This document shows, in pieces, positions 1,641 to 20,057 of a DNA stretch of 26,921 nt. The translations under genes were made by a program, and so were the position numbers. The DNA comes from Spirogloea muscicola. Its lineage: Eukaryota > Streptophyta > Zygnematophyceae > Spirogloeales > Spirogloeaceae. Below the pieces are notes generated by a model. It saw only the letters and a program-made list of their open reading frames with translations, did not search any database and was not told the DNA's origin. Location: assembly GCA_009602725.1 (NCBI GenBank), contig WELB01000081.1, positions 179,768-206,688 on the forward strand. Direction: 5' to 3'. Position 1 is the first letter of the stretch. Every line of letters starts with the position of its first letter.

Positions 1641-1647
1641 GGCGATG

Positions 1648-1842: not shown

Positions 1843-1929
1843 TGAACATTGCGCACAGCCAGACCTCAGCTTCAAGTTTCGCCAACCCAGACTTCTAAAT
1901 TCAGACTTCAGACTTCAAAAATTCGATAT

Positions 1930-1990
1930 TCATTTCTGGGCTGGCCAAGCACAGCCATCGCCCTCTACTGGAATCTTCCCCGCTTCCAAA
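1930..1990 (+). repeat. LINE-like 3' UTR fragment, sense
   Basis: It contains GGGCTGGCCAAGCACAGCC followed by ATCGCCCTCTACTGGAA, the terminal block of the family UTR. It immediately precedes a block of antisense copies. Confidence 0.45.
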
Positions 1991-1999
1991 AGAAAAAGG

Positions 2000-2800: not shown

Positions 2801-2834
2801 CCATGGACCGCTATTTACAAAGGGGGCGAGGGCT

Positions 2835-3190: not shown

Positions 3191-3224
3191 GTCAGCTGTG
3201 AAGAGCTAGCCCAAACAGTGACAT

Positions 3225-3625
3225 TGTCCCAAAAGAAAATGGAAATGTGGTTCTTTCAAAAAGAGGGAGGGTGTAAACAGCCAGCCCGAACAAGACTGAC
3301 AAGGTCCGAAGGGGCCGAGAGGCTCCTTAACTTGTACGGTTTGTACGGTCCCCTTACGGTCCCCTTGACTTGTACTTGTACGGGCACATCAATGGCGCTG
3401 CGAAACACCATGTTACATGAAGAAGTAGCACTCAGAATGGGGGCAAGGGCTGTGAAAAGCCAGCCCGAAAAGCATTGACAAAGGTTCGAAGGGGCCAAAT
3501 GATGGAGGGGCCTAAAAAGCGCTAAGCAGCTATTAAGGGGCCTGAAGATGCTATGTCAGAACGGGGGAGGATGGACCACTCAGTAACTACGAGTGAGGAG
3601 CCTCAAATCCGACAGACTAGCTGCG
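3225..3625 (-). repeat. LINE-like 3' UTR units, antisense, with a short tandem repeat
   Basis: Units lie at about 3225-3335 and 3410-3625. Between them, about 3335-3385, is a small internal array of TTGTACGGT/CCCCTTACGGT motifs. The second unit ends within about 20 bases of the start of RHD3 homology at 3642, so this element borders the RHD3 fragment. Confidence 0.55.
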
Positions 3626-3641
3626 AAACACCGTGGTACAG

Positions 3642-4600
3642 ACCTGGGACAGCGACGTCAAGCCCGAGCAGTATGCAGCTGTGCCGCTCAGCAACTTTTC
3701 AACGTGAGCAGTCCTTGCGCGCGCCACTTCCGGCTAAGCCCTTGCACTTTCTTTGCGTCATTCATTCATTTATCTGAGCTCGCCAATGACAGCCATCGCC
3801 CACCATTAAAATAGTCTTTCTTCACTTTCATTTGCCTGCTGCCACCCCAAGCAGAGCAGCTGAGGTTGACCTGCACTCCCGCCCTTGCCCGCAGGTAGAT
3901 GTGACGGCGCTGGCCAACTTCGAGGATGAGGAGGAGCTCTTCAAGGAGCAGGTGGTGGACCTGCGGGCGCGTTTCATGTTAATGCGATCGCACCGGGAGG
4001 GCTGGCAGGAGACCAGCACAAAGTCTTAACGTGGTCGGCTTTTGCAACAATTGTGCAGAAAATGTGGTGCAATATCCGACAATCATGCGGCGTCGACCTC
4101 CCCGTCCACAAGGTGCACCTGCACTTGGACATGAATCAGAGGCTGAGGAGAGTCTCCTTAAGGTGGTGAGGGGGTACAAGTTGGAGAGGAGCGAGGCTGA
4201 GCAGATGGTGGCAAAGCTGACAGCTGCTGGAGAGAGTGCATCAGGCAATGTGCACGTGAGGGAGCCAACGATGCCCTGATCGGAATGGTGCACAGGTGGG
4301 CAGTCTGGACGTTTACCCAGGGCCAATAATCAATGCACTGGAGCTCGTCTGCCTTTGACTGACGTGCTGTGCCATTTGACGTCTGTGTCAGATTCTATAT
4401 GGTGTTTAGGTTGGATGCCAATGGTGTGCAGCGGATCTGGCATGGCAAAAGATTCGTTTTCTCTGCGGTGGGCAGCAGTGGGCTGCCTGGACCTTGTTTA
4501 CTGGAGGTGCTGTGCCGATATAGGGCCTCATGTCACAAAGGCCTTGGCTACAGGATACTTGCGCAGCTTCGTAGTGCGGAATATATACGAACTAAGGCAT
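3642..4600 (+). pseudogene. RHD3/SEY1 copy A, rearranged fragment
   Basis: This matches exons of copy D (exon numbers as in the 15095-20057 entry). Exon 8 is at 3642-3703, with a 1-base loss. Exon 9 is at 3895-4112; it keeps VDVTALANF and ELFKEQVVDLRARF, then loses frame and reaches a stop at about 4027. The sequence next jumps to a diverged exon 14 (about 4133-4295, LLKVVRGYKLE-EAEQM) and exon 15 (4392-4467, FYMVFRLDA). Homology to intron 15 continues to about 4580. Intron sequence is retained, so this came from DNA duplication. Exons 10-13 are missing in this orientation; part of exons 11-12 lies inverted just downstream. Intron 8 also carries a short insertion. It cannot encode a GTPase. 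Confidence 0.85.
3745..3835. mobile_element. Small insertion in intron 8 of RHD3 copy A
   Basis: Compared with the same intron in copy B, about 80 extra bases separate CGGCTAAGCCCTT from TGCCTGCTGCCACC. The insert is flanked by near-identical CACTTTCTTTGC (3745-3756) and CACTTTCATTTGC (3823-3835), which look like a target-site duplication. Inside is GAGCTCGCCAATGACAGCC followed by ATCGCCCACC, resembling the terminal UTR block of the LINE-like family in sense orientation. Confidence 0.45.
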
Positions 4601-4668
4601 GTTAAGCACTTCGGATGGAAGATGTCCCACCTCGGCCTCCTTGGCAGGAAAAGCGAGCCTCTGCGAAG

Positions 4669-4882
4669 TAGGAGGAGCTCGCGCTTGCTGCTGCGGACGC
4701 CCTCGTCAAAGTACGCTGCCTCCGCATTGTACCTGCAGAGCAACCACAATCGGCTCAACTCTAGCATCGGTGGCCGCAGCCGCCTCTTGCAACGTAGCAT
4801 TACAGCCGGCAGCACGCATGCATATCCCTCAATGCAGTGCTCCAGATTTTCAGATGCCTGACGCCTGAAGCCATCCACAGCC
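4669..4882 (-). pseudogene. Inverted RHD3 exon 11-12 fragment
   Basis: On the minus strand, 4882-4826 matches RHD3 exon 11 (AVDGF-RQAS then LEHCIEG). An intron remnant follows, and 4733-4669 matches the first part of exon 12, [20 protein letters not shown], with the CTGCAG acceptor still present. The exon 11 donor has changed from GT to AT. The piece is opposite in orientation to every other RHD3 segment here. These are the exons missing from copy A, so an internal inversion or templated rearrangement is likely. Confidence 0.8.
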
Positions 4883-5018
4883 CCGGCCTGCCGAGGGCGG
4901 CGGCGGCGGCGGTGGCGGGGGCGGGCCACGGCTGTGGATGGCTTCGGGCATCAGGCATCTGACATTCTGGTGCACTGCATCGAGGGGTATGCATGCGTGC
5001 TGCCGTCTGTGGTGCTAC
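4794..5018. repeat. Imperfect palindrome of RHD3 exon 11, ~89-base arms
   Basis: The left arm (4794-4882) and right arm (4930-5018) are inverted copies of the same RHD3 exon 11/intron 11 segment. A 47-base GC-rich spacer rich in GGC separates them. The right arm reads plus-strand exon 11 (AVDGFGHQAS, HCIEG) with a donor at 4987. Arms diverge by scattered substitutions. The structure could extrude a hairpin and is a classic source of instability. Confidence 0.85.
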
Positions 5019-5046
5019 TATGCAAGATGCAGCTCTGCAGAGCAAT

Positions 5047-5047
<1 letters not shown>

Positions 5048-5080
<33 letters not shown>

Positions 5081-5085
5081 CGCGG
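5048..5085. repeat. (GGC)n simple repeat
   Basis: About eleven GGC units end in GGCCGCGGCG. Similar runs occur in the PHD exon (about 5541-5573), at 7583-7619 and at 15054-15090. Confidence 0.9.
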
Positions 5086-5109
5086 CGCCTTTGGCTGAGC
5101 GCACCGCCA

Positions 5110-5156
5110 GCCAAACCCTAATCTTAATCTCTCAACCCTAAGTACGAAACCCTAAG
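5110..5156. repeat. Degenerate telomere-type repeats (CCCTAAA strand)
   Basis: Three matches to AAACCCTAA or a close form fall within 47 bases: CCAAACCCTAATC, CTCAACCCTAAG and GAAACCCTAAG. The plant and green-algal telomere unit is TTTAGGG. They lie between the end of the RHD3 palindrome and the truncated PHD gene, marking a probable rearrangement joint. Confidence 0.6.
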
Positions 5157-5175
5157 ATACACCGGCGTGGCGCAG

Positions 5176-6882
5176 GTTCATGCGCGTGCGGCACACCGTG
5201 GGCGGCCAGCCGGTGCGCGGCTCCCTCGCCCAGCCCGCCGTCTTCCGCATCCCCGTCGCCGACCAGGTCCCGGCTTTGCCATCCCCATCCGGCCCTCCCC
5301 TCGGCGAGCTCAGCCTCTCCGTCGCTGCCGCACATGATGTACAATGAATCAGCAACAACTACAATGATATTGTGATATTTAGGAATTTTCACAATAAGCA
5401 TAACAACAATGACAATAACCACAATAACAACATAACAATAGAACCATGAGAAGATTCTAGGTTGCGCGGCTCACGCCCGAGCGGCTGCGGCTGCTCCGGT
5501 GGTCGCCAGGTGTACGAGCTGAGCGAGGAGGAGCAGCTGTCTGCGGCGGCGGCGGCGGCGGCGGCGGCGGCGTACGGCGACGCCGTGTGCGCCGAGTGCC
5601 GCGAGGCCGGCGACGACGGCCTGCTGCTCCTGTGCGACAGCTGCGATGGCGCGGCGCACACATACTGCGTCGGCCTCGGCCGCCGCGTACCCGTTGGCAG
5701 CTGGCACTGCCGGGTAGCCCACACTGAACTCACTTATGGCTCCCTTATCTTAATGACACCATAATTCCAAGACCTTAACCAGATGATAGTAACACTGGCG
5801 AGCGGCTGTGGCTGCCGGCGTTGGCCTGCGCTGCACAGGCATGCCGGGCTAGTGAGGAGCCAGCACAGTCGTGCGTGGGCGTGCATGATGACGGCGACGA
5901 CGGCGAGTCCAAGATCGGCGCCAGCGACAACAGCGACGCCGACTACTCGCCAGCCGCGGCGGAGGGCAGCGGCAACAGCGAGGAGGAGGTGGAGGAGGAG
6001 AGCGAGGCTGGCGACGGGGATCTGATGCCGCTCAGCACGATCGCCGCCTCACTGCAGAGCGCCGCCGGCAAGCGGCGGCGCGCCCGCAGCCGGGCCAGAG
6101 TGGCAGCAGCACTGCCTCCGGCGCGCCGCTGCCGCCTCCGGTCAGCGCGGGGAACACAAACTGCCGGCTCACGGGGACTGGCTCGGGAATCGGTGGCGGC
6201 GGTGGCGGGGTCAGCTCTCCGACGGTCGTGGCCAGCGGCGGCAACGTCGGTCGCCGATGACCTCGGCTGGCGCTCCAGGGGCGCAGCAGCGGTGGCCCGC
6301 ACGGTCGGCCAGCAGCGTCGGCTGCAGCAGCGCGTCCAGAGCCTGCGGGACAACTGGCAGCTCATACGCAACGGCATCCTGGACTTCCGCGCAGCGGAGA
6401 CGGCGGCAGCGGCATCTGCAGCAGCACCACGTTGGCGCGGGGGCTGCAGCTCAAGGGCTTCGCCAGCAGCAGCCGGGAGCACAAGCCGGCCGGCAGCAAG
6501 GACGGTGGCGGCGGCAGCGACAGCATCCAGTCGGGCCGGTCGGACGGCGGCGTGCGGGGAGGACGACGACGTTGCGCGGGCCTGGGCAACGCTCGACCGG
6601 GCCCGTGCAACACTGAGCGCTGTGAGCAGCAGCAGAGACGGCGTTGGTGGCCGCCGGCGTAGCAAGACCTTGGTGACACCGCAGTCCCGCCCGCCCACTT
6701 CGTCAAAAAGCAAATGGCTGCCCTGTGCCACGTTGTCGTCCTCGGCTGGCGCCGTTGGCGGTGGCCGCGAGCCTTTGCCCTGCCGCAGCTCCGGGGCAAG
6801 CTCCACGGCCAGCAGGCAGCACAAAGGCCTCGCCACTGCCCGCATCAGAGCTCGGCAACCACTCCAGCGGCCTGCGCCATAA
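5176..6882 (+). CDS. PHD-finger protein, 5'-truncated (plant PHD/RING-like)
   Basis: Three exons are visible. 5176-5266 reads RFMRVRHTVGG, ending AVFRIPVADQ. 5510-5713 begins VYELSEEEQL, then a poly-Ala run, then the PHD finger. 5839-6882 completes the finger and continues to TAA 6880-6882. The finger is C4HC3: exon-2 residues C27, C30, C42, C45, H50, C53 and C67, plus the Cys two codons into the last exon (WHCRAC). PHD fingers usually read histone H3 tails. In remembered plant homologues the segment VPERDQVYQPSE joins an upstream RING to this finger, matching IPVADQ|VYELSEEE here. The RING is absent; telomere-like sequence lies directly upstream. Acidic (SEEEVEEESE) and basic (KRRRARSRAR) stretches follow, then QQRVQSLRDNWQLIRNGIL and DDVARAWATLDRARATL, both family-like. 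Undetected introns in the long last exon are possible. The gene is either 5'-broken or its first exons are elsewhere. Confidence 0.7.
5345..5450. repeat. A/C-rich low-complexity tract in a PHD intron
   Basis: The intron holds AACAACAATGACAATAACC-type sequence, unlike the GC-rich exons around it. No coding or RNA signal is seen. Confidence 0.6.
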
Positions 6883-7583
6883 ACCTGACCTGCGCTGACC
6901 CGGGCTGGCCGCCACCACCACTGATCTCTATGGGCGCAGCGGCTGCAGCGTCCCCATGGCTAAGATGCCACAATGTGAGCTCGCCACTGCTGACGCCTTC
7001 TACTGCTGACGCCTTCTAAGTGATAAGCATGCTCTTAGGAAAGACCTATGCCCTCAGATTGTTCGATTTGTATCTGTATGATGCGCGTAAGCAAGTTTCG
7101 CATAGTGCCGGCCGTAATACCATTGCACCGGTTCTACTGTGCAGGNAGCCGCTCCCCCGGCCCGCTGCCGTCCTCGAGCCCTCGCAACGACTGCTCGCGA
7201 GCCAGCGCCGGACCTCCGCCGGCTCTCCGGAGCTGCTCACCGCCGCCGCCGCCGCGCCTGAGCGCCGCCGCATGGCCGTCAGCAGCCGCCGCATGCACGC
7301 CGCCGTCATCAGCGGGGGCTACCGAAGGAGCTGACGGAGCTCGGCGACGGCATACCGGCGGCTCCGCCAGGCCAGGTTTTCTGGCTACACCGATGCGGCT
7401 CAGCATCTGCATGCCATTGAGATGCGTGAGCCCGAGGATGGTGCCGCAAGTCGCGGGCCACATCCGGCGGCGCCGGCGGGCGAGGAGGGAGGGCGGAGGC
7501 GGTCACGCCCCCCGGTTCGAGGTTTTGAAGGCTCAGAGGTCCTGGGAGTTGGAGCGGGAGCGAGGAGGTAGCACCTGCGCCCG

Positions 7584-7614
<31 letters not shown>

Positions 7615-7648
7615 CGGCTGACGCTGCGGCTGAGCTGCGGCGGCGCAG
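6883..7648. other. No assigned gene; contains one N and GCC repeats
   Basis: GC-rich sequence runs between the PHD stop and the first RHD3 exon of copy B. An N at 7146 probably marks an assembly gap. Several long frames exist on both strands, but they are rich in Arg, Ala and Pro and match nothing recognised. (GCC)n lies at 7583-7619. No equivalent of RHD3 exon 1 was found here. Confidence 0.6.
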
Positions 7649-10590
7649 GCAAGAGCACGCTGCTCAACCACCTGTTTGGCACGTCCTTCCGCGAGATGGA
7701 CGCCTCCGTCGCAGGCCGGCGCCGCCGCCCTTCCTCTGCTTGCTGGCTTCCACACCTGGCTGCCTTTCCAAGCCACTCTTCAAGTATCAGCAGCCGCATT
7801 CTTTCTCTTTGAGCCCGCCGCCGGAGCTGCTGCCGGCCGACGCCACCGCCGGCTGACGGCGCGCCAGTTCGCGGGCCCCTGCGCGCCGCAGGAGCCCGAC
7901 GACGCTGGGCGTGTGGCTGGGCCTGGCGGCGGCCGTCTCGCCACCCACGCTCGTCATTGACATCGAAGGCACTGACAGCAGCGATCGTGGCGAGGTGCGC
8001 CGCTCCTTGCGGACAGCTGTCCAGCCTGCTGCTTTGCCGGCAACTGCCAGCAAATTCGCTGCCGTGCGGGTGCGGAGCGAGGCTCCAGCACTACACACAA
8101 CATCATTAGCTGCAGGGTGGCTGGCAGGCCGGACCTGACGCTCGGTTCGCTTCTGCGAGTACCATGGCCGGCTCCTTGCTGGACGACATGGTGTTCAAGA
8201 AGCAGAGCGCGCTCTTTGCGCTTGCCGTTTCTGACATCGTCATTATCAACATGTGAGTGCCGCCGGCTCTTGTCATTCAGATGTTCCATGCGAGACATTT
8301 CAGTGCTGGCTAGGCATCAGGTCTTCCAACGCCGCGCTCGCTTGCGCTTTGTCGCAGCCCACTTTTTGCCCAGTGTCGCCCCATGAGCTGACACTGGCAT
8401 CCCATGCTGCTCCCGCTGCTGCGGCAAGGTGTTGCTTCAAAGTTGGATGCAAGCAGGCCTCCACCAAGCACCGTCTCAAGACCGTCTTCAAGGTGTGCGG
8501 TGCAGCAACCATTGCAGCACCCAGCTGCAGTTTGCACGACAGATGCCAGCGGCGCTGACGCTGACGCGGGCGCCAACGAGCAGGTGATGCTGTGACAATT
8601 TACACCACGCAAGATCACACTGCTCTTCGTCATCCGCGACATGACGAACTGCGCCACTGGCACCGCAGCCTCTGACGCCTACTTGCGCCCGTCCTGCGGG
8701 TGCCATTGCTACCTGTCCTGCATGCTTGGCCCGTGTCTAATAACGCGTGCCAGCCCTGCCGCCTGTGCAGACGCCGTTGGAGATGCTGGAGCCAATCGTA
8801 CGTGGCGACATCGAGGAGGTCAGCTCGAGAAGCCACCTAGACACCTGTCATCGTCTGCACCGCTTGCTTTGGCAAGCGCTGCCCACGACAGCGCTGCTCG
8901 CAGCTCGTGGCTTTCCTCTGGCGCTGCCTGACTGCCGGCTGCGTTCCACCACGCCGCAGATCTGGGACAGCGTCGTCAAACGCGAGCAGTATGCAGCTGT
9001 GCCACTCAGCAACTTCTTCAAAGTGAGCAGCCCCCGCACGCGCCACTTCCGCCTGACCCTTTGCCTGCTGCCACCCTGCTTAGAGCAGCCGAGGTTGACC
9101 TGCACTCCCGCCCTTGCCCGCAGGTGGAGGTGACGGCACTACCCAACTTTGTGAAGAAGAAGGAGCTCTTCAAGGAGCAGGTGGTGGAGTTGCGGGCGGT
9201 TCAGTAACGCGGTAGCGCCAGGAGGGCTGGCCGGAGACCAGCAAAGAGTTGTGCTGGGGTCGGTGTTCGCCATAAGTGTACAAACCGTGTGGTGTGAGAT
9301 TTGCAACAACCGCGACCTCGACCTCCCCGCCCACAAGGTGCACTTGCTGCTGGACGGCTAAGGTGGCACTCGTGCTCTCCCCTCAAGGCTACTCTCTCTT
9401 CGTCGACAGAAGTATCGTCCAGCATGTTGATGTCCACTTACGAGCTTCCTGTAAGTAGGCTTGCACTGGACATCTAGGACGACAGGCCAGCCTCTTGAAC
9501 GGCCTGAGCTGCTGCCACGCAGGTGATGGTGGCAACAGTGTAGTGTGAGGACATTGCATGCAAGCAGCTGCAGGAGCTCCACACTCAGCAGGCCTGTGAC
9601 TGTAGGTGGCTGACTTGCGCATTGATGACCTGATACCACTGGCCACATTGGCAGCTGGGTTTCACACTGGGGACTGGCTGGGCCTGCTGTGGGGTAGAGG
9701 TGACACCACCTCGACTTAACGTGTCTGGGCGGCTGCGGCGTGGTAGGAGTGGCGCGATCTGGGCGAGGCCGCACAGGCAAGGGCCGCGGATGGCTTCGGG
9801 CGCCAGGCGTCAGCGATGTTAAAGCACTGCCTCGAGGGTACGCTTTTGCGTGCTGCCATCTGCCATGCTCCCCCCCCTTCAGCTCTGACGCTGTTGAGCC
9901 GGTTCTTGCTGCTCTGCAGGTACGATGCAGAGGCAGCCTACTACGATGAGGGAGTCCGAAGCAGCAAGCGCGAGGGTCCTCATTATGTCCAGGTGGGCTG
10001 CCTGGACTCGCACTGAAGTCGGTTGTGCAACACCTACGTGCCAGCACTTGGCCTGTGGAGTGAAGTTGCAGGACAAGAGTGTGCTGCTTTCGCCTGGGGA
10101 TTGTTGGAGACTCTGCTAGCAGCTCCACAAGGAGACTAAGTCCACATTTCCCGAGCGAAGGAGTTGCAGGTGAGCATGCGGTAATAGCTGACTGTGCTTC
10201 TCAACGTTCCAGCCCCAATGGAAGGCGCAATATTTCAACGGTCCTAAGGTAGCAAATCCTCTTGTTGCAGAAGGAGCACATTGCACGAATGGTGTACTGA
10301 CTGCCCTGCTGTCTCCATCAGTGTATTGTATTCTCCGAGCAGGGGGCTAGGGTCGGATATTACATACTGAAAGGTTGAGATTGGATAAACAGCGCAGGGG
10401 TGGGGTAAAAGGCTCATGAGCTGGCAAGGTTTGCAGCGTGATGTCACGCCATTGTGATGCCATTGACAGGAGTGACGCTGGCAACAGCAACTCCCACTTC
10501 CTGCGCCCCACGTGATCGTCGTGAAGACCATGGGATTCATCGTGGTGGCCTACGTTCTTTGCACCGCTCTCGTCAGCTGGCAAGCTGACC
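7649..10590 (+). pseudogene. RHD3/SEY1 copy B, decayed duplicate
   Basis: Exons matching copy D: exon 2 (7649-7714, [18 protein letters not shown], 1-base loss before the donor), 3 (7892-7994, DIEGTD), 4 (8182-8252, acceptor CAG changed to CTG), 5 (8429-8492, WCHDIGREQ altered), 6 (8584-8649, TGA at 8593 and donor lost), 7 (8771-8818), 8 (8960-9022), 9 (9124-9337, TAA at 9205), 10 (9523-9591, TAG at 9541), 11 (9747-9837, 1-base loss), 12 (9920-9974, then broken), 17 (to 10169, TAG at 10117) and a weak exon 18 (about 10488-10580, LPAPHVIVV). Exons 13-16 are missing, though a short intron-15-like piece remains near 9986. Introns are kept, so it is a DNA duplicate. Two lost splice sites and several stops exclude a working GTPase. 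Confidence 0.9.
10211..10350 (+). rRNA. Mitochondrial-type LSU rRNA fragment (likely NUMT)
   Basis: The segment reads in order AGCCCCAATGGAAGGCG, AACGGTCCTAAGGTAGC (10237-10253), CTTGTTGCAG, then GCACGAATGGTGTACTGACT followed by GCTGTCTCC and CAGTG. This is the order of domain IV/V of bacterial-type 23S rRNA (around E. coli 1900-2030). The second and fourth motifs are among the most conserved in LSU rRNA. The nuclear 25S form differs (CTCTTAAGGTAGCCAAATG), so the source is organellar, more likely mitochondrial because of its divergence. Only about 140 bases are present, so it is a fragment, not a gene. It sits between exons 17 and 18 of RHD3 copy B. Confidence 0.8.
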
Positions 10591-10654
10591 ACCGGTGACG
10601 CTAGCAATTTGCACCACTCCTTAGAGGCTCCATGTCATGCTACTAAATGGATCC

Positions 10655-10775
10655 CTCCATGCCGCTCCAGTGAGCCAGATCCTTGCCTTGCACCGCCGTG
10701 CTGGTCGTGCGCTTTGCAGCAGCCTCACGCTTGCGTCAGCGGAACTCCTCCTCTACTCCTCGGCTCACACCAATG
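10655..10775 (+). repeat. LINE-like C-terminal coding fragment, sense
   Basis: The frame reads QILALHRRAGRAL then LLYSSAHTN, homologous to QALALHRRAGRALAAASG read on the minus strand near 21600 and to 12095-12215. It is a short stub without UTR. Confidence 0.5.
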
Positions 10776-11580
10776 GCTGCATACTCGACATTCCCTGTAG
10801 TCCTGTGGATCATCGTGTGGCCGGCAACTGGTCGTCATTCGCGACTCGTAGAAAATGTAGGCAAGAATATTGCCCAATATTTAGGACTACCTGTGCCTGG
10901 CAAGCGATGCCCATCCCAGAGTATGGGCCTTACTTTGTAACACGCTCGAACTCGTCAATGGCTGTGATCTGCAGAGGAGCTTTGCTGCCAATTCCAACGT
11001 GGGGCTCTAAGCGGTGCTTCATAGATGCAAAGGCATATCTTGCAGGTGTTAGAATGTGTCCTTTACTTCCATTGCGTATCGGAGAGCACCTTCAGGCCAG
11101 CTCCAAGTGCGTCCGCAGCAAGCGCAGTGTTGAATAATGCAGCTGTCATGTACTGCTACCTTGACAAACGGGCTCAGTTGGGGGCAAGGTCCCCAATCTT
11201 GTAGCCCGTACTTAATGCAGGATATACACGAGTAGTATTTGCCGCAGCTCCTCGGACTCCTACATCTGGAGATCGAGCAACAACTGCAGAAGGACATCGT
11301 AACACCATCCAGTCAACAAGCACGCCGGTATGGCGTGCCATCTGCTATGTACTGTGTATGCGGAATGCCAAGCCCAAGTACCAGGCAATAATGTGTCGAA
11401 AGCAAACAGTGGGGCCAAGGCACTGAATTGGGCCAAAAGTTAACAAGCCAACCAAGCCAATGAGGCCAACGATCCACAGAGCCAGGAGTGAAGCGGAGTG
11501 GAATGCGTCTTTCCCCGGCTCACAATGAGAACCGCCCCTATGATATTATCGAGTCTTCCGTCAGTGCCCTGCCTCTGGCT
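10776..11580. other. No assigned gene
   Basis: Frames up to about 165 codons occur on both strands, but none shows a recognised domain or a convincing exon with splice sites. No repeat from elsewhere in the window was seen. It may be old transposon or intergenic sequence. Confidence 0.5.
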
Positions 11581-11584
11581 TGAT

Positions 11585-11670
11585 GAGGCAACAGCTTTTC
11601 CAGAGTAAGGTGATGGCTGTGAGAGGCCAGCCTAAAAGGAACGGACAAGGTCTGGAAGGACCGGAAGGTG
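11585..11670 (-). repeat. LINE-like 3' UTR unit, antisense
   Basis: It contains GCTGTGAGAGGCCAGCCTAA, GGAACGGACAAGGTCT and GGAAGGTGCAAAAG, the standard UTR block. Confidence 0.55.
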
Positions 11671-11749
11671 CAAAAGTACATAATTACTCACGTTGACTTC
11701 TGCAAATGGACGAATGTAGAGCACCTGAGCAAGCGAGCAAGAAGCAAGG

Positions 11750-12045
11750 AAAAGCTTTGCCTGCTCCCACGTCGCGAAGAGCAGCCCAGGGTGACCTGCG
11801 CTCCGCTCTTGCCTGCAGGAGGAGGTTGACGGCGCTGGCCAACGTCGAAGAGGAGCTCTTCAAGGAACAGGTGGCGGAGATACGAGGTACTGTTCGTACA
11901 TCTGACCATGCCAGGGGGGCTGGCAGGCGACCAGCACGAAGTCGTACCAGGGTCTGCTTTTGTGAGGAGTGCAAGAAATCTGGTGCTAAACCTGCAACAG
12001 GGGCGATCTTGCCCTCTCGGCCCACAAGGTGCACTTGCGTCCAGG
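11750..12045 (+). pseudogene. RHD3/SEY1 copy C, exon 9 only
   Basis: Homology begins in intron 8 (CTTTGCCTGCT-CCAC, then AGAGCAGCCCAGGGTGACCT) and covers exon 9 at 11819-12028. Best preserved is [18 protein letters not shown]; further on, CCAGGGGGGCTGGCAGGCGA and the terminal CCCACAAG with its GTGCAC donor side survive. The exon is 210 bases instead of 216 and the frame is broken. It passes into unrelated sequence and then a LINE-like end at about 12090. Confidence 0.8.
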
Positions 12046-12089
12046 TTGCGCCACTCCTGCCATCCCTGTAGCCGCCCAGACACATTATC

Positions 12090-12220
12090 AAGGTGCATGC
12101 GTCTATCCAAGTCCCTCCAGCAGTCTCAAGCGCTTGCTTTGCACCGCTGAGCCCGTTGCAGCAGCGTCTGGCTTGCGCAGCGGGTTGCTCTTCCTCCCCT
12201 CAGCTCATCTTAACATTGCT
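12090..12220 (+). repeat. LINE-like C-terminal coding end, sense
   Basis: The reading MRLSKSLQQSQALALHR is followed by an early stop. The DNA then continues GCAGCAGCGTCTGGCTTGCG and CTTCCTCCCCTCAGCTCATC, almost the reverse complement of 21590-21700. Confidence 0.6.
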
Positions 12221-12229
12221 GACACGGGT

Positions 12230-12345
12230 GAGAAAGTGGTTCTCCCAAAGGGGGTGAGGGCTGTGGAAAGGCAGCTCATGGACGAAGTTTGGACAAGGTC
12301 AAAGGGCCGAAGGCGCTATAGCAACACAGCTATGCAAGTGGCGAA
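12230..12345 (-). repeat. LINE-like 3' UTR unit, antisense
   Basis: It has GTGGTTCTCCCAAAGGGGGT, GAGGGCTGTGGAAAGGCAG, GGACAAGGTCAAAGGGCCGA and CACAGCTATGCAAG in the usual order. Confidence 0.55.
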
Positions 12346-12524
12346 GGTATTAAGAGCGTCCTGTTTGCCACGCGTGTGGCTCGGCTAGCAGATTGTATGA
12401 ATACCCTCTGTATGCACCTGGCTGGCTGTTACAGTTGCTCAATATCAGCAGCTTCTCTTTATCTACCTTAGGCCGCCTGGATCTTGGTCATATGTTGTGG
12501 CTGGCAATTCAAGAAGTAAGCTCT

Positions 12525-12705
12525 TGTAAAGCTTTGAGGACTGTGAAAAGCCAGCTCAAGTAGATTGGACAAGATTCAAAGGGCTGAATGGCACTAAGTC
12601 AAAAGCTGCACAGCTATGCAAGTAATCGCTTAAGTGTGTTTCAGCGACTTTCGGCCCCTTCGGACCTTGTCATTCCTTTTCAAGCTAGCTTTTCACAGGG
12701 GAGTG
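12525..12705. repeat. Inverted pair of LINE-like 3' UTR units
   Basis: An antisense arm (about 12529-12585, TGTGAAAAGCCAGCTCAAG ... GGACAAGATTCAAAGGGCTG) faces a sense arm (about 12640-12700, CGGCCCCTTCGGACCTTGTC ... AGCTTTTCACAG). The spacer is about 55 bases and the arms are about 50 bases with mismatches. Confidence 0.6.
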
Positions 12706-12889
12706 GGCTTTTCACAGCCCACTCCCCTTCGGATGCGCTTGCTTCTCTATGTAAGTTACTACAAGTGATTGACTACAGATGAATACTCGTGTGATTGCAA
12801 GTCACTGAATTTTGCCTAAATAGTATACTGTCTGGTGTGACTTCCATCCATTTCAAACGCACCGTGCACCTTCTACCCTGCCCACTGCA

Positions 12890-12926
12890 ACGTCGTATGA
12901 CTGCGACTGCGACTGCGACATTGTGT
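12890..12926. repeat. Short (GACTGC)n microsatellite
   Basis: Three to four GACTGC hexamers lie just upstream of the family-2 LINE-like end. Confidence 0.7.
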
Positions 12927-12939
12927 GTCAGCTTGTTTG

Positions 12940-13140
12940 CAGCGAGCGCAGGCTCATGCTTTGCACCAGAAAGCTGGTCAAGCCTTAGCTGGTGGCACAA
13001 GGGCTTGTCAAATGCTGTCCAGTATTCGGGCATCAGTCAGCGACATCTGTGTGCTGAATCGCGGTTACTGAGCGGGTTAGCTTAGCAGCAAGTGATGTAC
13101 AACTGGCAGAGTGCTTGCCCTTTGTACTTGTACTCAGACC
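12940..13140 (+). repeat. LINE-like 3' end, second subfamily, sense
   Basis: An open frame reads AQAHALHQKAGQALAGG, then SDICVLNRGY and TGA at about 13071. The UTR includes TGCTTGCCCTTTGTACTTG. The C-terminus matches the first subfamily in plan (ALHRRAGRALAAASG ... SDLRLLTRGY) but differs in sequence, so it is a sister group. An inverted partner lies at 13650-13861. Confidence 0.6.
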
Positions 13141-13189
13141 CTGTCATTAAGTATATACACCATCTTCCCACTGTGTAGAAGATGAAATG

Positions 13190-13312
13190 GATGTGGCTGC
13201 TGATGTTAGAAGTGCGGCTGTAAAAGCCAGCCAGGTGCATACAGAAGGTGGTCATGTCTATATTAGCGGAGCCACAGGCTAGGCAGTCAGGCCGCTCTTA
13301 GTACCCCATGTC
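13190..13312. repeat. Dispersed repeat, first copy (second at 21462-21566)
   Basis: Both copies read GCGGCTGT-AAAGCCAGCCA, then TGCATACAG, GGAGCCACAGGCTAG, CAGTCAGG/CAGCCAGG and CGCTCTTAGTA-CCCC in the same order. The first copy has about 15 extra bases after GCATACAG. They join a UTR block to sequence not seen in the other units. Confidence 0.65.
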
Positions 13313-13440
13313 AGCAGTATGACAAAAGCTCGCCCAATTTAAGGTGGCTGGAAAGAAGAAAGTGCTCGCCCATAGAGAAGAAAAGGCTGGAAAAGGCCAG
13401 CCCAAAAAGAATGGACAATATGGAGTCAAATGAGCTTCTC
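13313..13440 (-). repeat. LINE-like 3' UTR unit, antisense
   Basis: It contains AAGCTCGCCCAATTTAAGGT, GGCTGGAAAAGGCCAGCCC and AAAAAGAATGGACAATATGG, like the unit starting at 2845. Confidence 0.5.
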
Positions 13441-13454
13441 ATTTAAGCAAGACA

Positions 13455-13472
13455 ACACCCTAAACCCTAGCC
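13455..13472. repeat. Interstitial telomere-type repeat, CCCTAAA strand
   Basis: ACACCCTAAACCCTAGCC contains one full unit and parts of its neighbours. It is opposite in orientation to the longer tract at 13862-13902. Confidence 0.6.
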
Positions 13473-13649
13473 GTAATTTGGAAGAGCTCCAAAATCGCAA
13501 CAGAATATTGATTGTTCAGGCAAAACCTAGTGCAAGATTGGGGCTAAAAGAAATGAAGCCCTAAGCTAAAGAAGAAGTAAAAAATAAGGTAAGCCCATCC
13601 AAAGCCAGAAAGAGCGGCTCATTCAAAAGTGGAAGTTCGTGTTTTGGAT

Positions 13650-13861
13650 ATGAACGAGAGCCAAAATGGTCAAGTACAAAGGCAAGCACATCTGAAGACC
13701 TACATAACCTACAGCAGATTGACCCGCTCAGTAACCACGGGTCAAAACATGAAGGTCGCTGATCGATGCTTGAATACTAGATGGCAGATACGAAGCCCTT
13801 CTGCCACCGACTAGAGCTCGCCCAGCTTTCTGGTGCAAAGCATTAGCCTGAGCACGCTGTG
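13650..13861 (-). repeat. LINE-like 3' end, second subfamily, antisense
   Basis: The minus strand reads AQANALHQKAGRALVGGR, then SISDLHVLTRGY and stop. UTR with TGCTTGCCTTTGTACTTG follows toward 13650. It is an inverted copy of 12940-13140. Its truncated 5' end joins telomere-type repeats with no visible intervening host sequence. Confidence 0.65.
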
Positions 13862-13902
13862 GTCTAGGGTTTAGGTTTAGGGTTTGACGGTTTAGGGATA
13901 GG
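13862..13902. repeat. Interstitial telomere-type repeat, TTTAGGG strand
   Basis: TCTAGGGTTTAGGTTTAGGG is followed by TTTGACGGTTTAGGGATAGG, about five units with small changes. The TTTAGGG unit is the usual plant and many-algae telomere sequence. Confidence 0.8.
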
Positions 13903-13999
13903 CCAAAACAGGCCAAAACTCGTCGTCGGAAGAACGACAGATATGCGGCTGGCAAGCCCATCTCAGCCGGGAACACATCTGCATGTTGTGTGTAGCCTA

Positions 14000-14965
14000 G
14001 ATTGGCAATATTTTGAAGGAGAGTGTGGAAACGAGGACCTAAGCAGCCAAAATGTCGACTGCCGCTGGCAGGAGCTGATCGCAGTGGGGGTAATCGGAAG
14101 AGTGCTGCAGCTTTCTTTGTTCGGCACCACCCACTGCGTGGCCAGCGATGTCCGTCGATGCTGGACTTTCATAGGCCTCCGTAACAAGAACACGACCAAG
14201 GCCCGTGGTCCTCCACCAGGTTGCACGCCCACAATGTAAAGTGTGCGGCAATGATGACGTCCCTGGGCATCCGTGGTGATAGGCATAACGTTGTTCACTT
14301 CCACGACCGCACGGTACCTGGCGTCGCGCATCAAACCCGCCAGGGCATCACGAAGGAGGTTGTGGATGCCCACCACTTCTGGTCCAGTGGGGCATCGCAG
14401 CATGTGAGTGGCGAGCTCAGCACCCTCTGCACGGAAGCCGCACTCACACTGGCGCACTCCAATCAGGCAGTTAGGTGGTAGGCCGAGGAAGAGTTGAAGC
14501 GACGTCCGAAAGGCCTCGGAGCTGAAGCTGAAGGCGTTGGCGACGGCGTGAGAGGTGATCCAGTCTGTGGCACCAGGTGTGGCGAGAGAAGTAAGTCTTG
14601 CCAGGCTCCTTGGATTGTTCTGAATATCCGGCAGCCTCCTCAACCTTCTGCGGCGCTCATCTCCCACTGCCGTAACCAGTCTGGATTGTGCCCCTCTGTC
14701 AGAAGCTTGGGCGAGGTCTGAGAATGGCGTGAGTAGGGGTTGTATAAAGGAAAGAGAGCCGACTGCCGAGTCGCGGATGCTCCTCAGATCCACTTGGAAG
14801 ATGAAGGAGCCTTCCTCCACATTGCGTACAGGGTCGCGGAGGCAAGGGAAGCGCATGGGAAGCAGAGAGGCGATGTGGTGCCAGCAGCCCAGGAAGGCTG
14901 CTTGCGCCGTCTGCTCCAACGACCGGCAGCCAAGGCCGCCCATGCGAGTGGGTCCAAAGGGGGCG
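14000..14965 (-). pseudogene. Non-LTR retrotransposon C-terminal region, decayed
   Basis: The minus strand is open from about 14965 and reads GPTRMGGLGCRSLEQ, typical of the region after the reverse transcriptase thumb. FSSEAFRTSLQLFLGLP follows. Next is a CCHC knuckle, CECGFRAEGAELATHMLRC (about 14394-14452), and then HNLLRDALAGLMRDARY. Further on, IVGVQPGGG, then in a shifted frame VTEAYESPAST and EQRKLQHYSDYP, fit the plan of the restriction-like endonuclease of R2-type elements (knuckle, RH-like helix, PD-like, D-like, K..Y). A frameshift near 14210 breaks it. No RT catalytic core remains upstream, where RHD3 exon 1 begins 130 bases away on the other strand. The endonuclease reading is an inference. 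Confidence 0.65.
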
Positions 14966-15053
14966 AGGGCGGTGGACAAGGCCAGAGGAGAAGGCAGACA
15001 CAGCGGTCGTCCGTATCGTCGGACCTCCCCTGCGGCTTCTACCATCGCCGGCA

Positions 15054-15090
15054 TCGGCGGCGGCGGCGGCGGCGGCGTCGGCGGCGACGG
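15054..15090. repeat. (GGC)n run in the RHD3 5' leader
   Basis: About eight GGC units, interrupted by GTC, end a few bases before the ATG at 15095. They lie in the expected 5' UTR. Confidence 0.8.
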
Positions 15091-15094
15091 CGGG

Positions 15095-18000
15095 ATGGCG
15101 GCGGAGGAGGCGGCGGGGCCGGTGCAGCTGATAGACCGCGACGGGAGCCTGGACGGCGCGGCGCTGGACGCCTTCGTGCGCGGCGCGCGGCTGCCCGAGG
15201 CCNGGCACGTCCTTCCGCGAGATGGACGCCTTCGCCGGCAGGCCAGCGCCGCGGCCCCCCCCCTGGCTGCTCCGACGCTGGCCGGGTTCGGCATGGAGCC
15301 GGCTGGCCCGCAGCTGACGGCGCGGCGGCCGGCGTGGTCCCGCGGGCGAGCAGGAGCCAGACGACGCAGGGCGTGTGGCTGGGCCTGGCGGCGGGCATCC
15401 AGCCGCCCACGCTCGTGTGCGACATCGAAGGCACTGACGGCCGCGAGCGCGGCGAGGTGAGCGGCAGCTCGGCCTGCTTCTAGCCAGCGTTCTGCTGGGA
15501 GGGTGTTGGCCGTGCCTCGGCGGAGCTGAGGCTGCTGCAGATGGCGAGCCGGTCCTGATGTGCGCCGTTTGCTGCGGCTGTCAATGGGGCCGGCTGCTTG
15601 CAGGACGACACGGCGTTCGAGAAGCAGAGCGCGCTCTTTGCGCTCGCCGTCTCTGACATCGTCATCGTCAATATGTGAGTGCTGCCTGCCGCCGTGGTTC
15701 AGTTTCTTCACACTGGACGCGTCACTGCTATTTGGGCATCCGCTATGTTGAGCTTGCGCTCGCTGGGCCTCAGCCAGCACCCGCTTACTAATGTCGTCAA
15801 ATTGAGCTGACACGGGCAAACTCCACTGTCGCGACTGCTCCTGCTGCTGTGGCCAGGTGGTGCCACGACATTGGGCGCGAGCAGGCCGCCAACAAGCCCC
15901 TCCTCAAGACCGTCTTCCAGGTGCGCGGTGCAGCAACTGGGTGCCGCGCTCAGCTGCCGCTTTCACCACAGACCCCAGCGGCGTGACGCTTTTTCTGGCG
16001 CTGGCGAGCAGGTGATGCTGCGCCTCTTCACGCCGCGCAAGACCACGCTGCTCTTCGTCATCCGCGACAAGACAAAAGTGCGCCACTTGCAATGCAGTTG
16101 CCAACGCTTTTCTAAGCCTGTCCTGCGGTGTACTGCTGCCCGCTGTGCATGGTAGGCCTGTGGCTAAGCCGCCTACCAGCCCTGCCGCCGGTGGTGCAGA
16201 CGCCGATGGAAACGCTGGAGCCAATTCTGCGCGAGGATATCCAGAAGGTCAGCCCCTGGGCGCCACCTGGGCAAATGTCATTGGCTGCGCCAGTGGCCAT
16301 TGGCTGACTGTGCCATTGGCTGTCTATGCGCTGCTCGCAACTCGTGGGTCCCCCCGTGGCAAAGCCTAAATGCCAGCTGCAAATGTATGGGCTGCAGATC
16401 TGGGACAACATTGCGAAGCCTTCACAATATGCAGCGGTGCCGCTCAGCGACTTCTTCAATGTGAGCATTTCCACACGAGTGCCGCTCAGGAAACCCTTTG
16501 CCTGCTGCCACCTTGCGCACAGCTGACCTTCGCTTTTGCCCTTGAATGCAGGTGGAGGTGACGGCGCTGGCCAACTTCGAGGAAAAGGAGGAGCTCTTCA
16601 AGGAGCAGGTTATGGAGCTGCGGGCCCGATTCTTCAATTCGATTGTGCCAGGGGGGCTGGCGGGCGACCGGCGCGGCGTAGTGCCGGCATCGGCGTTCTC
16701 GCTGAGCGCTCAGGAGATGTGGCGCATCATTCGGGAAAACCGTGACCTTGACCTGCCCGCCCACAAGGTGCACCCGCTGGCTGGACAGCTAAGGTGGCAC
16801 CTGTGCTTCTTGGAGCGACAATGTAGGACGACAGACCCAACTCTTGACCGATGTGAGCTGTTGCTATGCAGGTGATGGTGGCAACAGTGCGGTGTGAGGA
16901 GATTGCACGCGAGCAGCTGCTGGGGCTCCGGAACCAGCAGGTCTGTGACTGCCAATGGTTCGCTCTTTCATTGAAGAGTGTTTGCCTCGATTGCCGCTAA
17001 CTTTTTGTCGAGATTCTGCTGGATCTGCTATGCGTGAAATTGCACTACCTCGAGTCTGCAAACACATGCTTTTGGCGGCTGCGGCGCTGGCAGGAGTGGC
17101 GCGACCTGGACGAGGCCGCAAAGGCGAGGGCCGTGGATGGCTTCGGGCGCCAAGCGTCGGCGATGTTGGAGCACTGCATCGAGGGGTACGCTTTTGCGTG
17201 CTGCCATCTGCGATGCTCCTGTGCAAGTTACGGCTGCGGGTCTGACGCTGTTGAGCCGGTTCTTGCTGCTCTGCAGGTACGATGCAGAGGCAGCCTATTT
17301 TGATGAGGGAGTCCGAAGCAGCAAGCGCGAGCTTCTCCTGTCCGAAGTCGGCAAGCTCATGCAGCCGGCATACACGGCCACGGTGGCGCACCACCGTACG
17401 GCTGCGCTTGTTGCTTTCAAGGAAGCATTGGACCGGCAGCTCGCCACGAAGAATGACGTGCCGTTTGCCGAGGCTGCAAATGCCACGATGAGGGCGGCGG
17501 TTGAAGGCTTTGACGCCAAGCTGGACGATACGCATGTCAGCCTATTGGGCTGGGATACAGCAAAGCCGCGTGAGAAGCTCTTGCGTGACCTGGAGGCACA
17601 TGTTGCAACCCTCCGGTTGCAAAGGCTTGCTGCCGTCACCAAGGAGGCTGAGGTGAGAGTGGTTGTAGCGTGCCGCAACAGCTGGCAGCCGAAGGCCGGC
17701 ACCAGGAGGGAAAGCTCCAATTACTTAGGCGCGTCTGACAGACCAGTAGGCAACTGGCACAGGTCATCCTGGAGCGCGCGATCTTGGACCCCGCTGGAAC
17801 GCTGCTCGATGCTGGGTCGTCCGATACATGGCCTGCCCTGCGCGAGCTCCTGTCACGAGAGACGCAGAGTGAGCATAACGATAGCAGGCAGTCTTCATTG
17901 GCGACAGCTTCAACTTGGGTGGCTACTGCTCGAGTGTACCGTGTGGCAGCTCTCTTGCAACCTTGCACCGTGCATTGAAGTGCGTGCATCTTATCAGCTG

Positions 18001-20057
18001 TACAGCTCAGTTCAGCATACACAGTGTTTACATGCAACTCTGAAGCTCAAAGCCTGACTGAAGACAACCTTGGCGAGCCAGTTGCCGAGAGGAGTCTGGT
18101 GAAGTCAGTGGAGGGGTACAAGGTGGAGGAGGGCGAGGCTGCGCAGATGGCGGCGGCACTGGTGGCTGCTGGACGGACGTGCATCGAGCGGCGTGCACGT
18201 GAGGAGGCCAAACAGGCCCTCATTCGTATGAAGGACCGGTGGGCATTCCGGACACCATAAGGACCTGAAGCAGTGTCTAGAAAGTTGGAGATTGTCTGCT
18301 TTGACTGACACATTGTGCTCATTGAGGCATGCCTATCAGATTTAACATGGTCTTCAGCCGGGATGCGGAGTCCATGCCGCGGGTTTGGAAAGGCGACGAG
18401 GACATCCGAGCCATCACGCGGGATGCGCGCGCAGCGGTGGGCTACCTGGACACTGTTCCCAACACTGTGCCAAACTGAGGCCGTAGTATGTGAAGGCCTT
18501 GGCTTTTGAGGTGGTCAGCTTACCAGACATCGAGCAGATTTGTGTAAGTTAGATTACTCTAAAATCTGGAATGATGTAACTGACAAGCGACAATTGCCCC
18601 CTGTAGGCTCTGCGGTTGCTAGCTGTTGTTGCCGCAGTGCGCCTCAACAAAGAGCAACCAGATACCATAGAGCCTGCGCTTCTGTCATTGCTCTCTGATA
18701 CCCCCGACAGCACCTCCACTGACGCCACTGCAGCTCCATCTTCGTCGTACCTCACATCGTCCACGTGGGAGACGGTGCGTCTGCAATGCAGAGGCTGCTG
18801 TTGTTCTGTCCTTGCCTCTCCACTTGAAGCTGAGAGGGTCTGACAAAGCGATACATCATGTCCCTTTCACTTAGGAGTTAGCATACAATTCTGCCAGCTG
18901 AGTTTGCAGCAGCTGCATGCTGGCAAGGTGCAGATGCCAGAGGAGGATGTGCTCTTGTCGCCTGGCCAGTGCCGGATCCTGTGGCGGCAGCTCAAAGCCG
19001 AGACGGAGTACACTATCAGCCAGGCCATGGCAGCGCAGGTGCGAAGGGACACTGGCTAGTGAGGCGCTTGACGACTGACAGTCATCCTTGGCGTTCTTGG
19101 TCTAGGATTCGTGCCAGATATAGGAGGACCATCTTTGTTAGGTCTCTAGGCTAGGTTTTAGCACATACGAGCCGGCAACTCTTGCAGATTGCAGACGGCA
19201 GCATTTGTTGTTGCTATGGCAGGAGGCAAGCCGACGAAAAGCCATGTGGCTTCCACCACCGTGGGCAATGGTCGCAATGTTTGTCCTTGGCTTCAACGAA
19301 TTCTGCGCTGCACTTGCCTTCCTTTGGTATGTCACCTTGACTCATCACTGTTATTCTTCAGATATATACCTATCTCCACTTGAGATGACTTTATGGTACC
19401 GTGTTGCTCTTTGCAGGGACTTTGCTTTCAATCCTATCATGTGGTTTGTTGCTGCTGCTGTCATCCTCCTCGGTCGTGCACTACTGAAGCAGATCGACCT
19501 CAGGGCAGAATTCCGACATGGCCTGGTGAGCTGCGCTTGCAGTGAGAAAATCTCAAAGTGCCAATCACAAGCAGCCAGCTCATGGGCAACTCAAATGGCT
19601 CTGGCATTGGAGTGATATATCAATCGCGATAGTGTAAGCTTAGCAAGACTGCGGGAAGCAAAATTTGTGAGGCTCGATCATCTCATTAGGCACCAGTTTC
19701 TGATGTAGCTGCAAAAGCAGCTAGAGGGGTGAGACCCTCACTTCAGTTCGAACTGCAAGCCAAGATTGCTGATGGGAAGTCTGAGCGTGCCGTGGAGTAC
19801 GGCAGGTAACTGGCCTGCTGTCAGTAAGTGCAAAGGTGGTGCCAGCCATGCTCAATGTGCTCAAGCGCCTGGCTGAAGTCAGCGAGGAGCGGTTGCACTT
19901 GAACGGGCCCACTCATGAAGCACCGGTAGCAGCGAGCGAGACGACATCGTCATTGGGTGCCGTGCTCGACAACCCATTGGTGGCTGGCCAAGGGCCGCTG
20001 GATGCAGCTTTGCGGCGCCGTCCTTCGCCCGTGCAGGCCTCCATGGTCACAACTTGA
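15095..20057 (+). CDS. RHD3: RHD3/SEY1 family ER-shaping GTPase, copy D
   Basis: Dynamin-like GTPase that fuses ER tubules. Exons: 15095-15202 ([18 protein letters not shown]), N, 15204-15241, 15354-15456 ([22 protein letters not shown]), 15604-15674, 15857-15920 ([16 protein letters not shown]), 16012-16077 (G4 motif VIRDKTK), 16200-16247, 16398-16460, 16552-16767 ([14 protein letters not shown]), 16872-16940, 17094-17185, 17277-17652, 17742-17868, 18025-18238, 18340-18436, 18607-18774, 18910-19038, 19223-19326, 19417-19525, 19806-20057 (TGA). Phases agree at every junction outside the N. Introns are GT-AG except intron 2 (GC-AG). About 837 residues are readable; with the gap it would be about 860, against about 800 in Arabidopsis. 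The two last-but-one exons give a membrane hairpin ([13 protein letters not shown] and [12 protein letters not shown]). The P-loop is missing at N 15203. The 17742 and 18025 acceptors are the least certain. This is the only intact copy here. Confidence 0.9.
15203..15203. other. N: assembly gap hiding the RHD3 P-loop
   Basis: Exon 1 ends RGARLPEA and the next readable residues are [12 protein letters not shown]. Family members have about 25 residues between these, including GPQSSGKSTLLNHLF. Copy B has the KSTLLNHLF part. One N therefore stands for at least about 75 coding bases plus an intron. Confidence 0.75.

What the first reader, a model, noticed from the sequence alone, without database searches (positions are those of the whole stretch)
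3642..20057. Four RHD3/SEY1 copies in one 16-kb stretch, in graded states of decay
Copies A (3642-5018), B (7649-10590), C (exon 9 only) and D (15095-20057) are all on the plus strand apart from one inverted piece. All keep intron sequence. A and C are scraps, B is nearly collinear but full of stops, and D is open. ER-fusion GTPases are usually single or low copy. Repeated local duplication with loss suggests a recombination-prone locus, or selection that tolerates only one good copy.
Basis: partly seen in the sequence, partly recalled or inferred. Interest (0 to 1): 0.72.

Follow-up and report, generated by a model that had tools for sequence, protein, structure and literature searches.

The report
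Old broken copies beside RHD3 gene
In the genome of a photosynthetic eukaryote, probably a green alga, a conserved gene for joining ER membranes sits next to the wreckage of one old, shortened sister copy, and the same arrangement occurs at three places, so this looks like ordinary gene duplication and decay with a few curious leftovers.

Summary
The four RHD3/SEY1 copies are real. D (15095-20057) reads as 787 codons without a stop, but a one-base N at 15203 replaces its P-loop. A, B and C are intron-bearing wrecks. The interpretation changes in three ways. (1) D is not the only good copy: three loci (C81 = window, C27, C236) each hold an open D, dN/dS 0.12-0.15 by NG86, against 0.82-1.06 for their introns read as codons. 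(2) The scraps that could be put in trees are not copies of D. They fall with one old sister lineage (B), 100/100 in two trees and weakly, 68/70, in a shorter one. No B copy seen is followed by the membrane-anchor exons e18-e20. (3) Some wreckage predates the split of the loci. B exons have diverged as much as B introns. One B copy on C236 reads through 581 aligned codons without stop or frameshift. I read this as birth-and-death evolution in a broadly duplicated genome. A soluble B GTPase and hairpin RNA from the palindromes are not excluded but have little support.

The parts
15095..20057 (+). Copy D: RHD3/SEY1 gene, 20 exons (e1 15095-15202; e2 15204-15241 partial; e3 15354-15456; e4 15604-15674; e5 15857-15920; e6 16012-16077; e7 16200-16247; e8 16398-16460; e9 16552-16767; e10 16872-16940; e11 17094-17185; e12 17277-17652; e13 17763-17868; e14 18046-18238; e15 18340-18436; e16 18607-18774; e17 18910-19038; e18 19223-19326; e19 19417-19525; e20 19806-20057)
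   Evidence: e2-e20 joined give 787 codons without a stop; AG acceptors from e3 on, GT donors except a GC donor after e2 that is kept in all three D genes; Pfam RHD3_GTPase 311.2 bits and Sey1_3HB 272.8 bits; dN/dS 0.12-0.15 (NG86) or 0.14-0.18 (YN00) between D genes. Exon ends were set by eye and by conservation; no RNA was seen
15203..15203 (.). Single N: assembly gap where the end of e1, intron 1 and the P-loop part of e2 should be
   Evidence: C236 and C27 have GCGAGKSTLLNHLF at this place, next to N gaps of their own
7642..10155 (+). Copy B: decayed B-lineage copy (P-loop/e2 to e11, start of e12, then e17)
   Evidence: tblastn; 2 in-frame stops; small gaps in e2, e6 and e9; groups with B copies of C27 and C236
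3639..4577 (+). Copy A, forward part: e8, e9, then e14 and e15
   Evidence: exon identity to D 0.63-0.76 with small indels; 4132-4577 matches scraps of C27 and C236 at 78-79%
4670..4889 (-). Copy A, inverted e12-e11 piece
   Evidence: 77.9% to D on the opposite strand; one clade with five inverted pieces of C27 (1) and C236 (4), support 96/96
4778..5034 (.). Palindromic foldback of the inverted e11 piece and a forward e11 piece
   Evidence: Self-alignment with its reverse complement over 257 nt at 80.9%; RNA fold -216.7 kcal/mol, z -18.7; G-T against A-C mismatches 6 to 4, p 0.75
11756..12038 (+). Copy C: e9-only scrap
   Evidence: sister to the e9-only scrap of C236, support 100/99; lies in a block of 3272 columns 86.3% identical to C236
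13234..14956 (.). Stretch of C81 between the two blocks collinear with C236; 13664-14341 is a repeat found once each in the C27 and C236 stretches at 82%
   Evidence: Collinearity with C236r is interrupted here

Best explanation
This is a birth-and-death gene cluster. An RHD3/SEY1 gene (D, the ER membrane-fusion GTPase) gave rise to a tandem sister (B) that lacks the membrane-anchor exons e18-e20, probably from the start. B then multiplied locally by tandem and head-to-head (palindromic) duplication, and most copies decayed under weak or no constraint. The locus now exists three times in a broadly duplicated genome, and each time D is kept and the B copies rot. Shown: a D clade and a B clade; constraint on D; near-neutral divergence of B; a scrap and an inversion shared between loci; several other sequences in more than one copy. 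Inferred: loss of e18-e20 at the founding duplication, polyploidy or hybridisation as the source of the three loci, and that D makes a working fusion protein.
For: RHD3-like matches at E <= 0.001 lie on three contigs only: 23 of 23 rows, 43 of 43, 37 of 37; these searches score the best candidates only. D81, D27 and D236 are open over the same 787 codons with 0 exon indels against 25-32 intron indels per pair; dN/dS 0.12-0.15 by NG86, 0.14-0.18 by YN00; introns read as codons 0.82-1.06. D and B clades 100/100 in the e9 and codon trees. Shared scraps: e9 scraps of C81 and C236 100/99, six inverted e11-e12 pieces 96/96. B exon identity 0.83-0.86, intron identity 0.82-0.85. In the stretches fetched no e18-e20 match follows a B copy. 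Other duplicated sequence: a flank of D three times at 86%, a Ribosomal_S8e gene twice at 86%, a Ribosomal_L19e exon four times.
Against: One B copy (C236:137788-142085, minus) has no stop or frameshift in 581 aligned codons of e2-e16; the simulated chance of no stop on its branch is about 0.01, so B was not simply dead. The branch model gives decayed B tips 0.44 and inner B branches 0.39, both below 1 (2dlnL 24.8 and 19.6). In the short e11-e12 tree the fork between D and the rest has only 68/70, and B27b and the smallest pieces were put in no tree. 'Three copies' is not uniform: S8e twice, the mitochondrial-carrier neighbour once. The order of the D genes is unclear: the codon tree pairs D27 with D236, while the lowest dS is D81-D236. 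Collinearity of C81 with the others stops at window 21375; the missing flank lies about 75 kb away, inverted, a rearrangement or a scaffolding error. Dating scraps by sharing assumes that the loci have not since exchanged sequence.
Confidence: 0.8

Rival explanations
1. Repeated, recent local duplication of D with loss: A, B and C are successive copies of D at different ages.
For: They lie in tandem with D, keep introns and differ in completeness. The D-against-rest fork is weak in the short e11-e12 tree (68/70).
Against: A, B81 and C fall in one clade with scraps of C27 and C236, apart from the D genes, 100/100 in the e9 tree. Scrap C and the inverted piece of A have closest relatives at other loci.
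Confidence: 0.08
2. The B lineage, at least the copy on C236, is still a gene: a membrane-less RHD3-type GTPase that binds D and dampens ER fusion.
For: e2-e16 read through 581 aligned codons without stop or frameshift and e2-e15 without any indel, while B introns differ by 15.6-17.7 indels per kb in pairs. An ATG exon 1 joins to the P-loop as GPQSSGKST, and DIEG and IRD motifs are kept (the roles of these motifs are recalled). Added cytosolic domain of an atlastin binds endogenous atlastin, prevents its dimerisation and fragments the ER (PMC6628656, passages seen).
Against: Terminal branch dN/dS 0.67, not separable from 1 (2dlnL 1.9). The exon-5 peptide, identical in all three D genes, is changed ([21 protein letters not shown] to WCTGIVCKQVANRPLLRTIFE). 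The AG acceptor of e14 is AT, as in the other three B copies aligned there. e13-e16 of B copies give 0.52-0.98. e16 has in-frame indels and e17 is out of step in the alignment, though an open e17 can be read. No expression data.
Confidence: 0.12
3. The palindromic scraps make double-stranded RNA that feeds an RNA-silencing pathway and tunes D (inverted-duplication route to small-RNA genes).
For: Nine palindromes whose self-alignment runs through the centre were found in the window and the C27 and C236 stretches, seven of them with RHD3 sequence. The window foldback folds far better than shuffles (z -18.7). Piwi-domain matches lie on four contigs (19 rows).
Against: In none of the nine palindromes are G-T mismatches significantly in excess of A-C on the gene's strand; one leans the other way (34 to 62, p 0.006). 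Arms are only 73-86% alike.
Confidence: 0.05
4. Gene fragments captured and spread by a transposon (Pack-MULE or Helitron-like).
For: Short repeats lie near several copies.
Against: No dispersal seen: all 103 match rows (which overlap one another) lie on the three contigs; the longer copies keep exon order and introns. Terminal repeats and target-site duplications were not searched for.
Confidence: 0.03

Closest known systems
RHD3/SEY1 family (Pfam RHD3_GTPase PF05879 and Sey1_3HB PF20428); solved relative SEY1, PDB 5ca8 (its source, Candida, is recalled)
   Same: D matches both domains over most of their length; a 272-residue middle part matches 5ca8 (E 3.5e-12); hydrophobic stretches in e18-e19 and a tail in e20, read by eye
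   Different: Three full genes at three loci plus a decayed sister lineage; the P-loop of the window's D is lost in an assembly gap
Tandem birth-and-death gene clusters with pseudogenes (general knowledge)
   Same: One conserved member, many truncated, frameshifted and inverted relatives at one place
   Different: The scraps come from one side lineage rather than from the conserved gene, and several form palindromes
Inverted-duplication model of MIRNA gene origin (PMC3237417; search listing and start of abstract seen)
   Same: Inverted duplicates of a protein gene near the parent
   Different: No transcription data and no sign of preserved pairing here
Lineage-specific duplications of atlastin/Sey1p (PMC9804665, passages seen)
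   Same: Multiple duplications of atlastin/Sey1p are reported there, for instance two proteins in Paramecium, which has had genome duplications
   Different: The passages seen do not describe a truncated side lineage or a pseudogene cluster

Membership tests
RHD3/SEY1 GTPases (copy D) | RHD3-type GTPase domain | tested here: met
   PF05879 311.2 bits over profile 17-245 of 245, cut-off 42.4
RHD3/SEY1 GTPases (copy D) | P-loop GxxxxGKS/T | tested here: inconclusive
   Lost in the N gap at 15203; the GKST stretch is present in D27 and D236
RHD3/SEY1 GTPases (copy D) | Long three-helix bundle of Sey1 type | tested here: met
   PF20428 272.8 bits, profile 2-417 of 419
RHD3/SEY1 GTPases (copy D) | Two close transmembrane segments and a C-terminal tail | tested here: inconclusive
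   e18 and e19 encode hydrophobic stretches and e20 a tail, read by eye; no membrane predictor was run
RHD3/SEY1 GTPases (copy D) | Mediates homotypic ER fusion | not testable with these tools
   needs cells or liposomes
RHD3/SEY1 GTPases (B copy on C236) | GTPase domain and part of the helix bundle | tested here: met
   562-residue reading: PF05879 246.9 bits; PF20428 170.1 bits over profile 2-287 of 419
RHD3/SEY1 GTPases (B copy on C236) | Transmembrane segments and tail | tested here: not met
   No e18-e20 match after its e17 by tblastn at E 0.05
Pseudogene (copies A, B81, C) | Disabling lesions relative to the working gene | tested here: met
   Missing exons, inversion, small indels; stops in B
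Hairpin small-RNA locus | Wobble-preserving changes in the stem | tested here: not met
   No significant excess of G-T over A-C mismatches in any of nine palindromes
Hairpin small-RNA locus | Precisely cut 20-24-nt RNAs | not testable with these tools
   no RNA data

The most novel reading that the evidence does not exclude
The B lineage is a natural, membrane-less RHD3 paralogue, still coding in one copy on C236, that dimerises with the anchored D GTPases and brakes ER fusion, while at the other two loci it has recently been lost.
Probability: 0.08. Interest if true: 0.6.

Novelty: new member of a known kind. Interest (0 to 1): 0.3.

Why it matters
As an ordinary case it corrects a tempting reading: decayed neighbours of a conserved gene need not be its own offspring, and apparent stages of decay in one window can partly predate the duplication of the whole locus. 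If the open B copy proves to be expressed, it would be a built-in inhibitor of ER fusion made by losing the membrane anchor, which could be tested directly.

Tried and rejected
Retroposition: rejected, introns are kept. Transposon capture: unlikely for lack of dispersal; terminal repeats were not looked for. Hairpin-RNA selection: tested by mismatch types, no support. Collapsed or duplicated reads: unlikely at 14-30% divergence, not tested with reads. A third copy of the Ribosomal_S8e gene was sought: besides the two long matches only a 214-base match (92%) and five of under 50 bases came up. The Pfam search for that family also gave two partial matches, on C61 and C284, which I did not follow. 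Rfam and tRNA searches of the window gave 0 hits. The organism could not be named: 68 matches to the chlorophyll a/b-binding family say photosynthetic eukaryote; green alga is an inference, and paper searches for a matching genome gave nothing that I could tie to it. RHD3, SEY1, duplication and pseudogene together: 0 papers; two searches listed papers on the family, none of which I opened for this question except PMC9804665. Passages of PMC3866526 were seen and not used. I therefore know of no report of such a cluster in that library, from those searches only. The e10-e12 value for B81 (0.485/0.741) is spoilt by a misaligned e12 and was not used; the branch model used B81 e2-e11 only. The branch model is my own code on one tree with stop codons masked, so its values are rough. 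The stop-codon simulation starts from present sequences, not an ancestor. Two Pfam queries, the ORF at 13966-15819 minus and the one at 22289-22744, gave no family, nor did 5821-6879.
Full report
What is there. The window is G000:C81:179768-206688 of a 153-Mb genome in 471 contigs; it lies between runs of N on its contig. The genome is that of a photosynthetic eukaryote (68 matches to the chlorophyll a/b-binding family); green alga is an inference. Exon peptides of D find A (e8, e9, e14, e15, then inverted e12 and e11 and a forward e11), B (P-loop/e2 to e12, and e17), C (e9 only) and D (e1-e20). They are DNA copies with introns.

Copy D. From the N at 15203 to the stop at 20057, 19 exons (e2-e20) give 787 codons without a stop, with AG acceptors from e3 on and GT donors except a GC donor after e2. 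Pfam places RHD3_GTPase (311.2 bits) and Sey1_3HB (272.8 bits) on it, and 272 residues of its middle match the solved SEY1 5ca8 (E 3.5e-12). The single N at 15203 stands where C27 and C236 carry the P-loop stretch GCGAGKSTLLNHLF; both have N gaps close by. So 'open' is true, but the P-loop of this copy is unseen.

Three loci, not one. The matches found at E <= 0.001 fall on three contigs: 23 of 23 rows, 43 of 43 and 37 of 37. C27 and C236 each carry an open D with the same exon boundaries and no exon indel, against 25-32 intron indels per pair. Pairwise dN/dS is 0.12-0.15 by NG86 and 0.14-0.18 by YN00; dS (NG86) is 0.157-0.192; exons are 94-95% and introns 85-86% alike. The same introns read as codons give 0.82-1.06. 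So three D genes are under purifying selection. A 1.5-kb piece from C27, about 2 kb beyond the end of D, occurs three times: C27, C236 (86%) and C81 (86%, but about 75 kb from D and inverted). A Ribosomal_S8e gene occurs twice at 86%, a Ribosomal_L19e exon four times, and window 6160-6949 a second time at 87%, while the mitochondrial-carrier neighbour is single, next best match 47%. The genome is therefore broadly duplicated; polyploidy or hybrid origin is my inference. The branching order of the D genes is not settled.

The scraps belong to one old side lineage. A tree of e9 from 15 copies separates the three D genes from the 12 others with 100/100; e12 from 8 copies gives 100/99 and the codon tree of nine copies 100/100. 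The shorter e11-e12 tree of 16 pieces has only 68/70 for that fork. B27b and the smallest pieces were put in no tree. The e9-only scraps of C81 and C236 are sisters (100/99) inside an 86% collinear block. Six inverted e11-e12 pieces, one on C81, one on C27 and four on C236, form one clade (96/96). If the loci have not since exchanged sequence, scrap C is older than the split of C81 and C236, and the inversion older than the split of all three. In the stretches fetched no B copy is followed by e18-e20; besides the three D genes, a diverged remnant about 19 kb left of the window and pieces at C81:155951-157291 carry these exons. The e14 acceptor is AG in all three D genes and AT in the four B copies aligned there; of two further scraps read by eye one has AT and one has a deletion at the place.

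How B evolves. Pairwise dN/dS among six B copies is 0.38-0.91 (15 pairs), and B81 against D 0.31-0.40. A home-made branch model gives D 0.13, the branch between the clades 0.34, inner B branches 0.39 and decayed B tips 0.44 (both below 1, 2dlnL 19.6 and 24.8), the B copy on C236 0.67 (not different from 1) and B236-5 1.2. By exon the picture is uneven: for B236 against B27c and B81, e9 gives 0.33-0.37 and e2-e8 0.53-0.56, while four pairs give 0.52-0.98 in e13-e16. Introns of B copies read as codons give 0.68-1.03, so part of the deficit can be a bias; exons (83-86% alike) and introns (82-85%) are about equally diverged. B exons have 3.3-5.4 indels per kb in pairs, introns 15.6-17.7. I conclude that B was under weak or early constraint and then let go. 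The copy on C236 is the exception: 590 codon positions of e2-e16, 581 of them aligned, without stop or frameshift; about 4.6 stops would be expected on its own branch under neutrality (P of none 0.010). It keeps a P-loop and other GTPase motifs, but has a changed exon 5 and no AG at the e14 acceptor. Whether it is a gene is open.

Palindromes. In the window and the C27 and C236 stretches nine palindromes of 257-1857 bp were found whose self-alignment runs through the centre; seven hold RHD3 exons. The one in the window (4778-5034) folds as RNA with z -18.7. Piwi-domain matches lie on four contigs. But G-T mismatches are not significantly in excess of A-C in any of the nine on the gene's strand, and one leans the other way (p 0.006). 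No control region of the genome was scanned for palindromes, so I cannot say that they are unusual here. I read them as scars of head-to-head duplication, of which A may be a deletion derivative.

Verdict. Duplications of atlastin/Sey1p are on record (PMC9804665, passages seen), and the cytosolic part of an atlastin can block the full protein (PMC6628656, passages seen), which makes the soluble-B idea testable. I rate the whole as a new member of a known kind, interest 0.3.

Noticed in passing
5462-6949: A PHD-finger ORF (PF00628, 33.9 bits, 5462-5761) and a 353-aa open frame after it sit between copies A and B; 6160-6949, behind the PHD finger, has an 87% copy on C50.
   Followed up: partly
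24535-26509: Mitochondrial-carrier exons on the minus strand (PF00153); the 26144-26509 part is single-copy in this genome with next best match 47%.
   Followed up: partly
1588-1875: Weak ABC-transporter match (18.8 bits, cut-off 25) on the minus strand; perhaps another gene fragment.
   Followed up: no
449-3699, 11586-13432, 22136-24144: Families of short repeats around GGCTGTGAGAGGCCAGCCC recur on both strands through the window; similar stretches occur in the C27 and C236 stretches.
   Followed up: no
C81:155951-157291 (outside the window): Pieces of e16-e20; the e20 piece is 98% identical to D81 and on the opposite strand to the rest, so it is recent or an assembly fault. Could not be fetched.
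   Followed up: partly
15242-15353: Intron 2 of D begins with GC instead of GT; the same in all three D genes and in the open B copy of C236.
   Followed up: partly
L013-L018 (C236:122001-181542): Five palindromes of about 1-1.9 kb in 60 kb; the one at 1295-3151 of the reverse strand holds no RHD3 exon match.
   Followed up: partly
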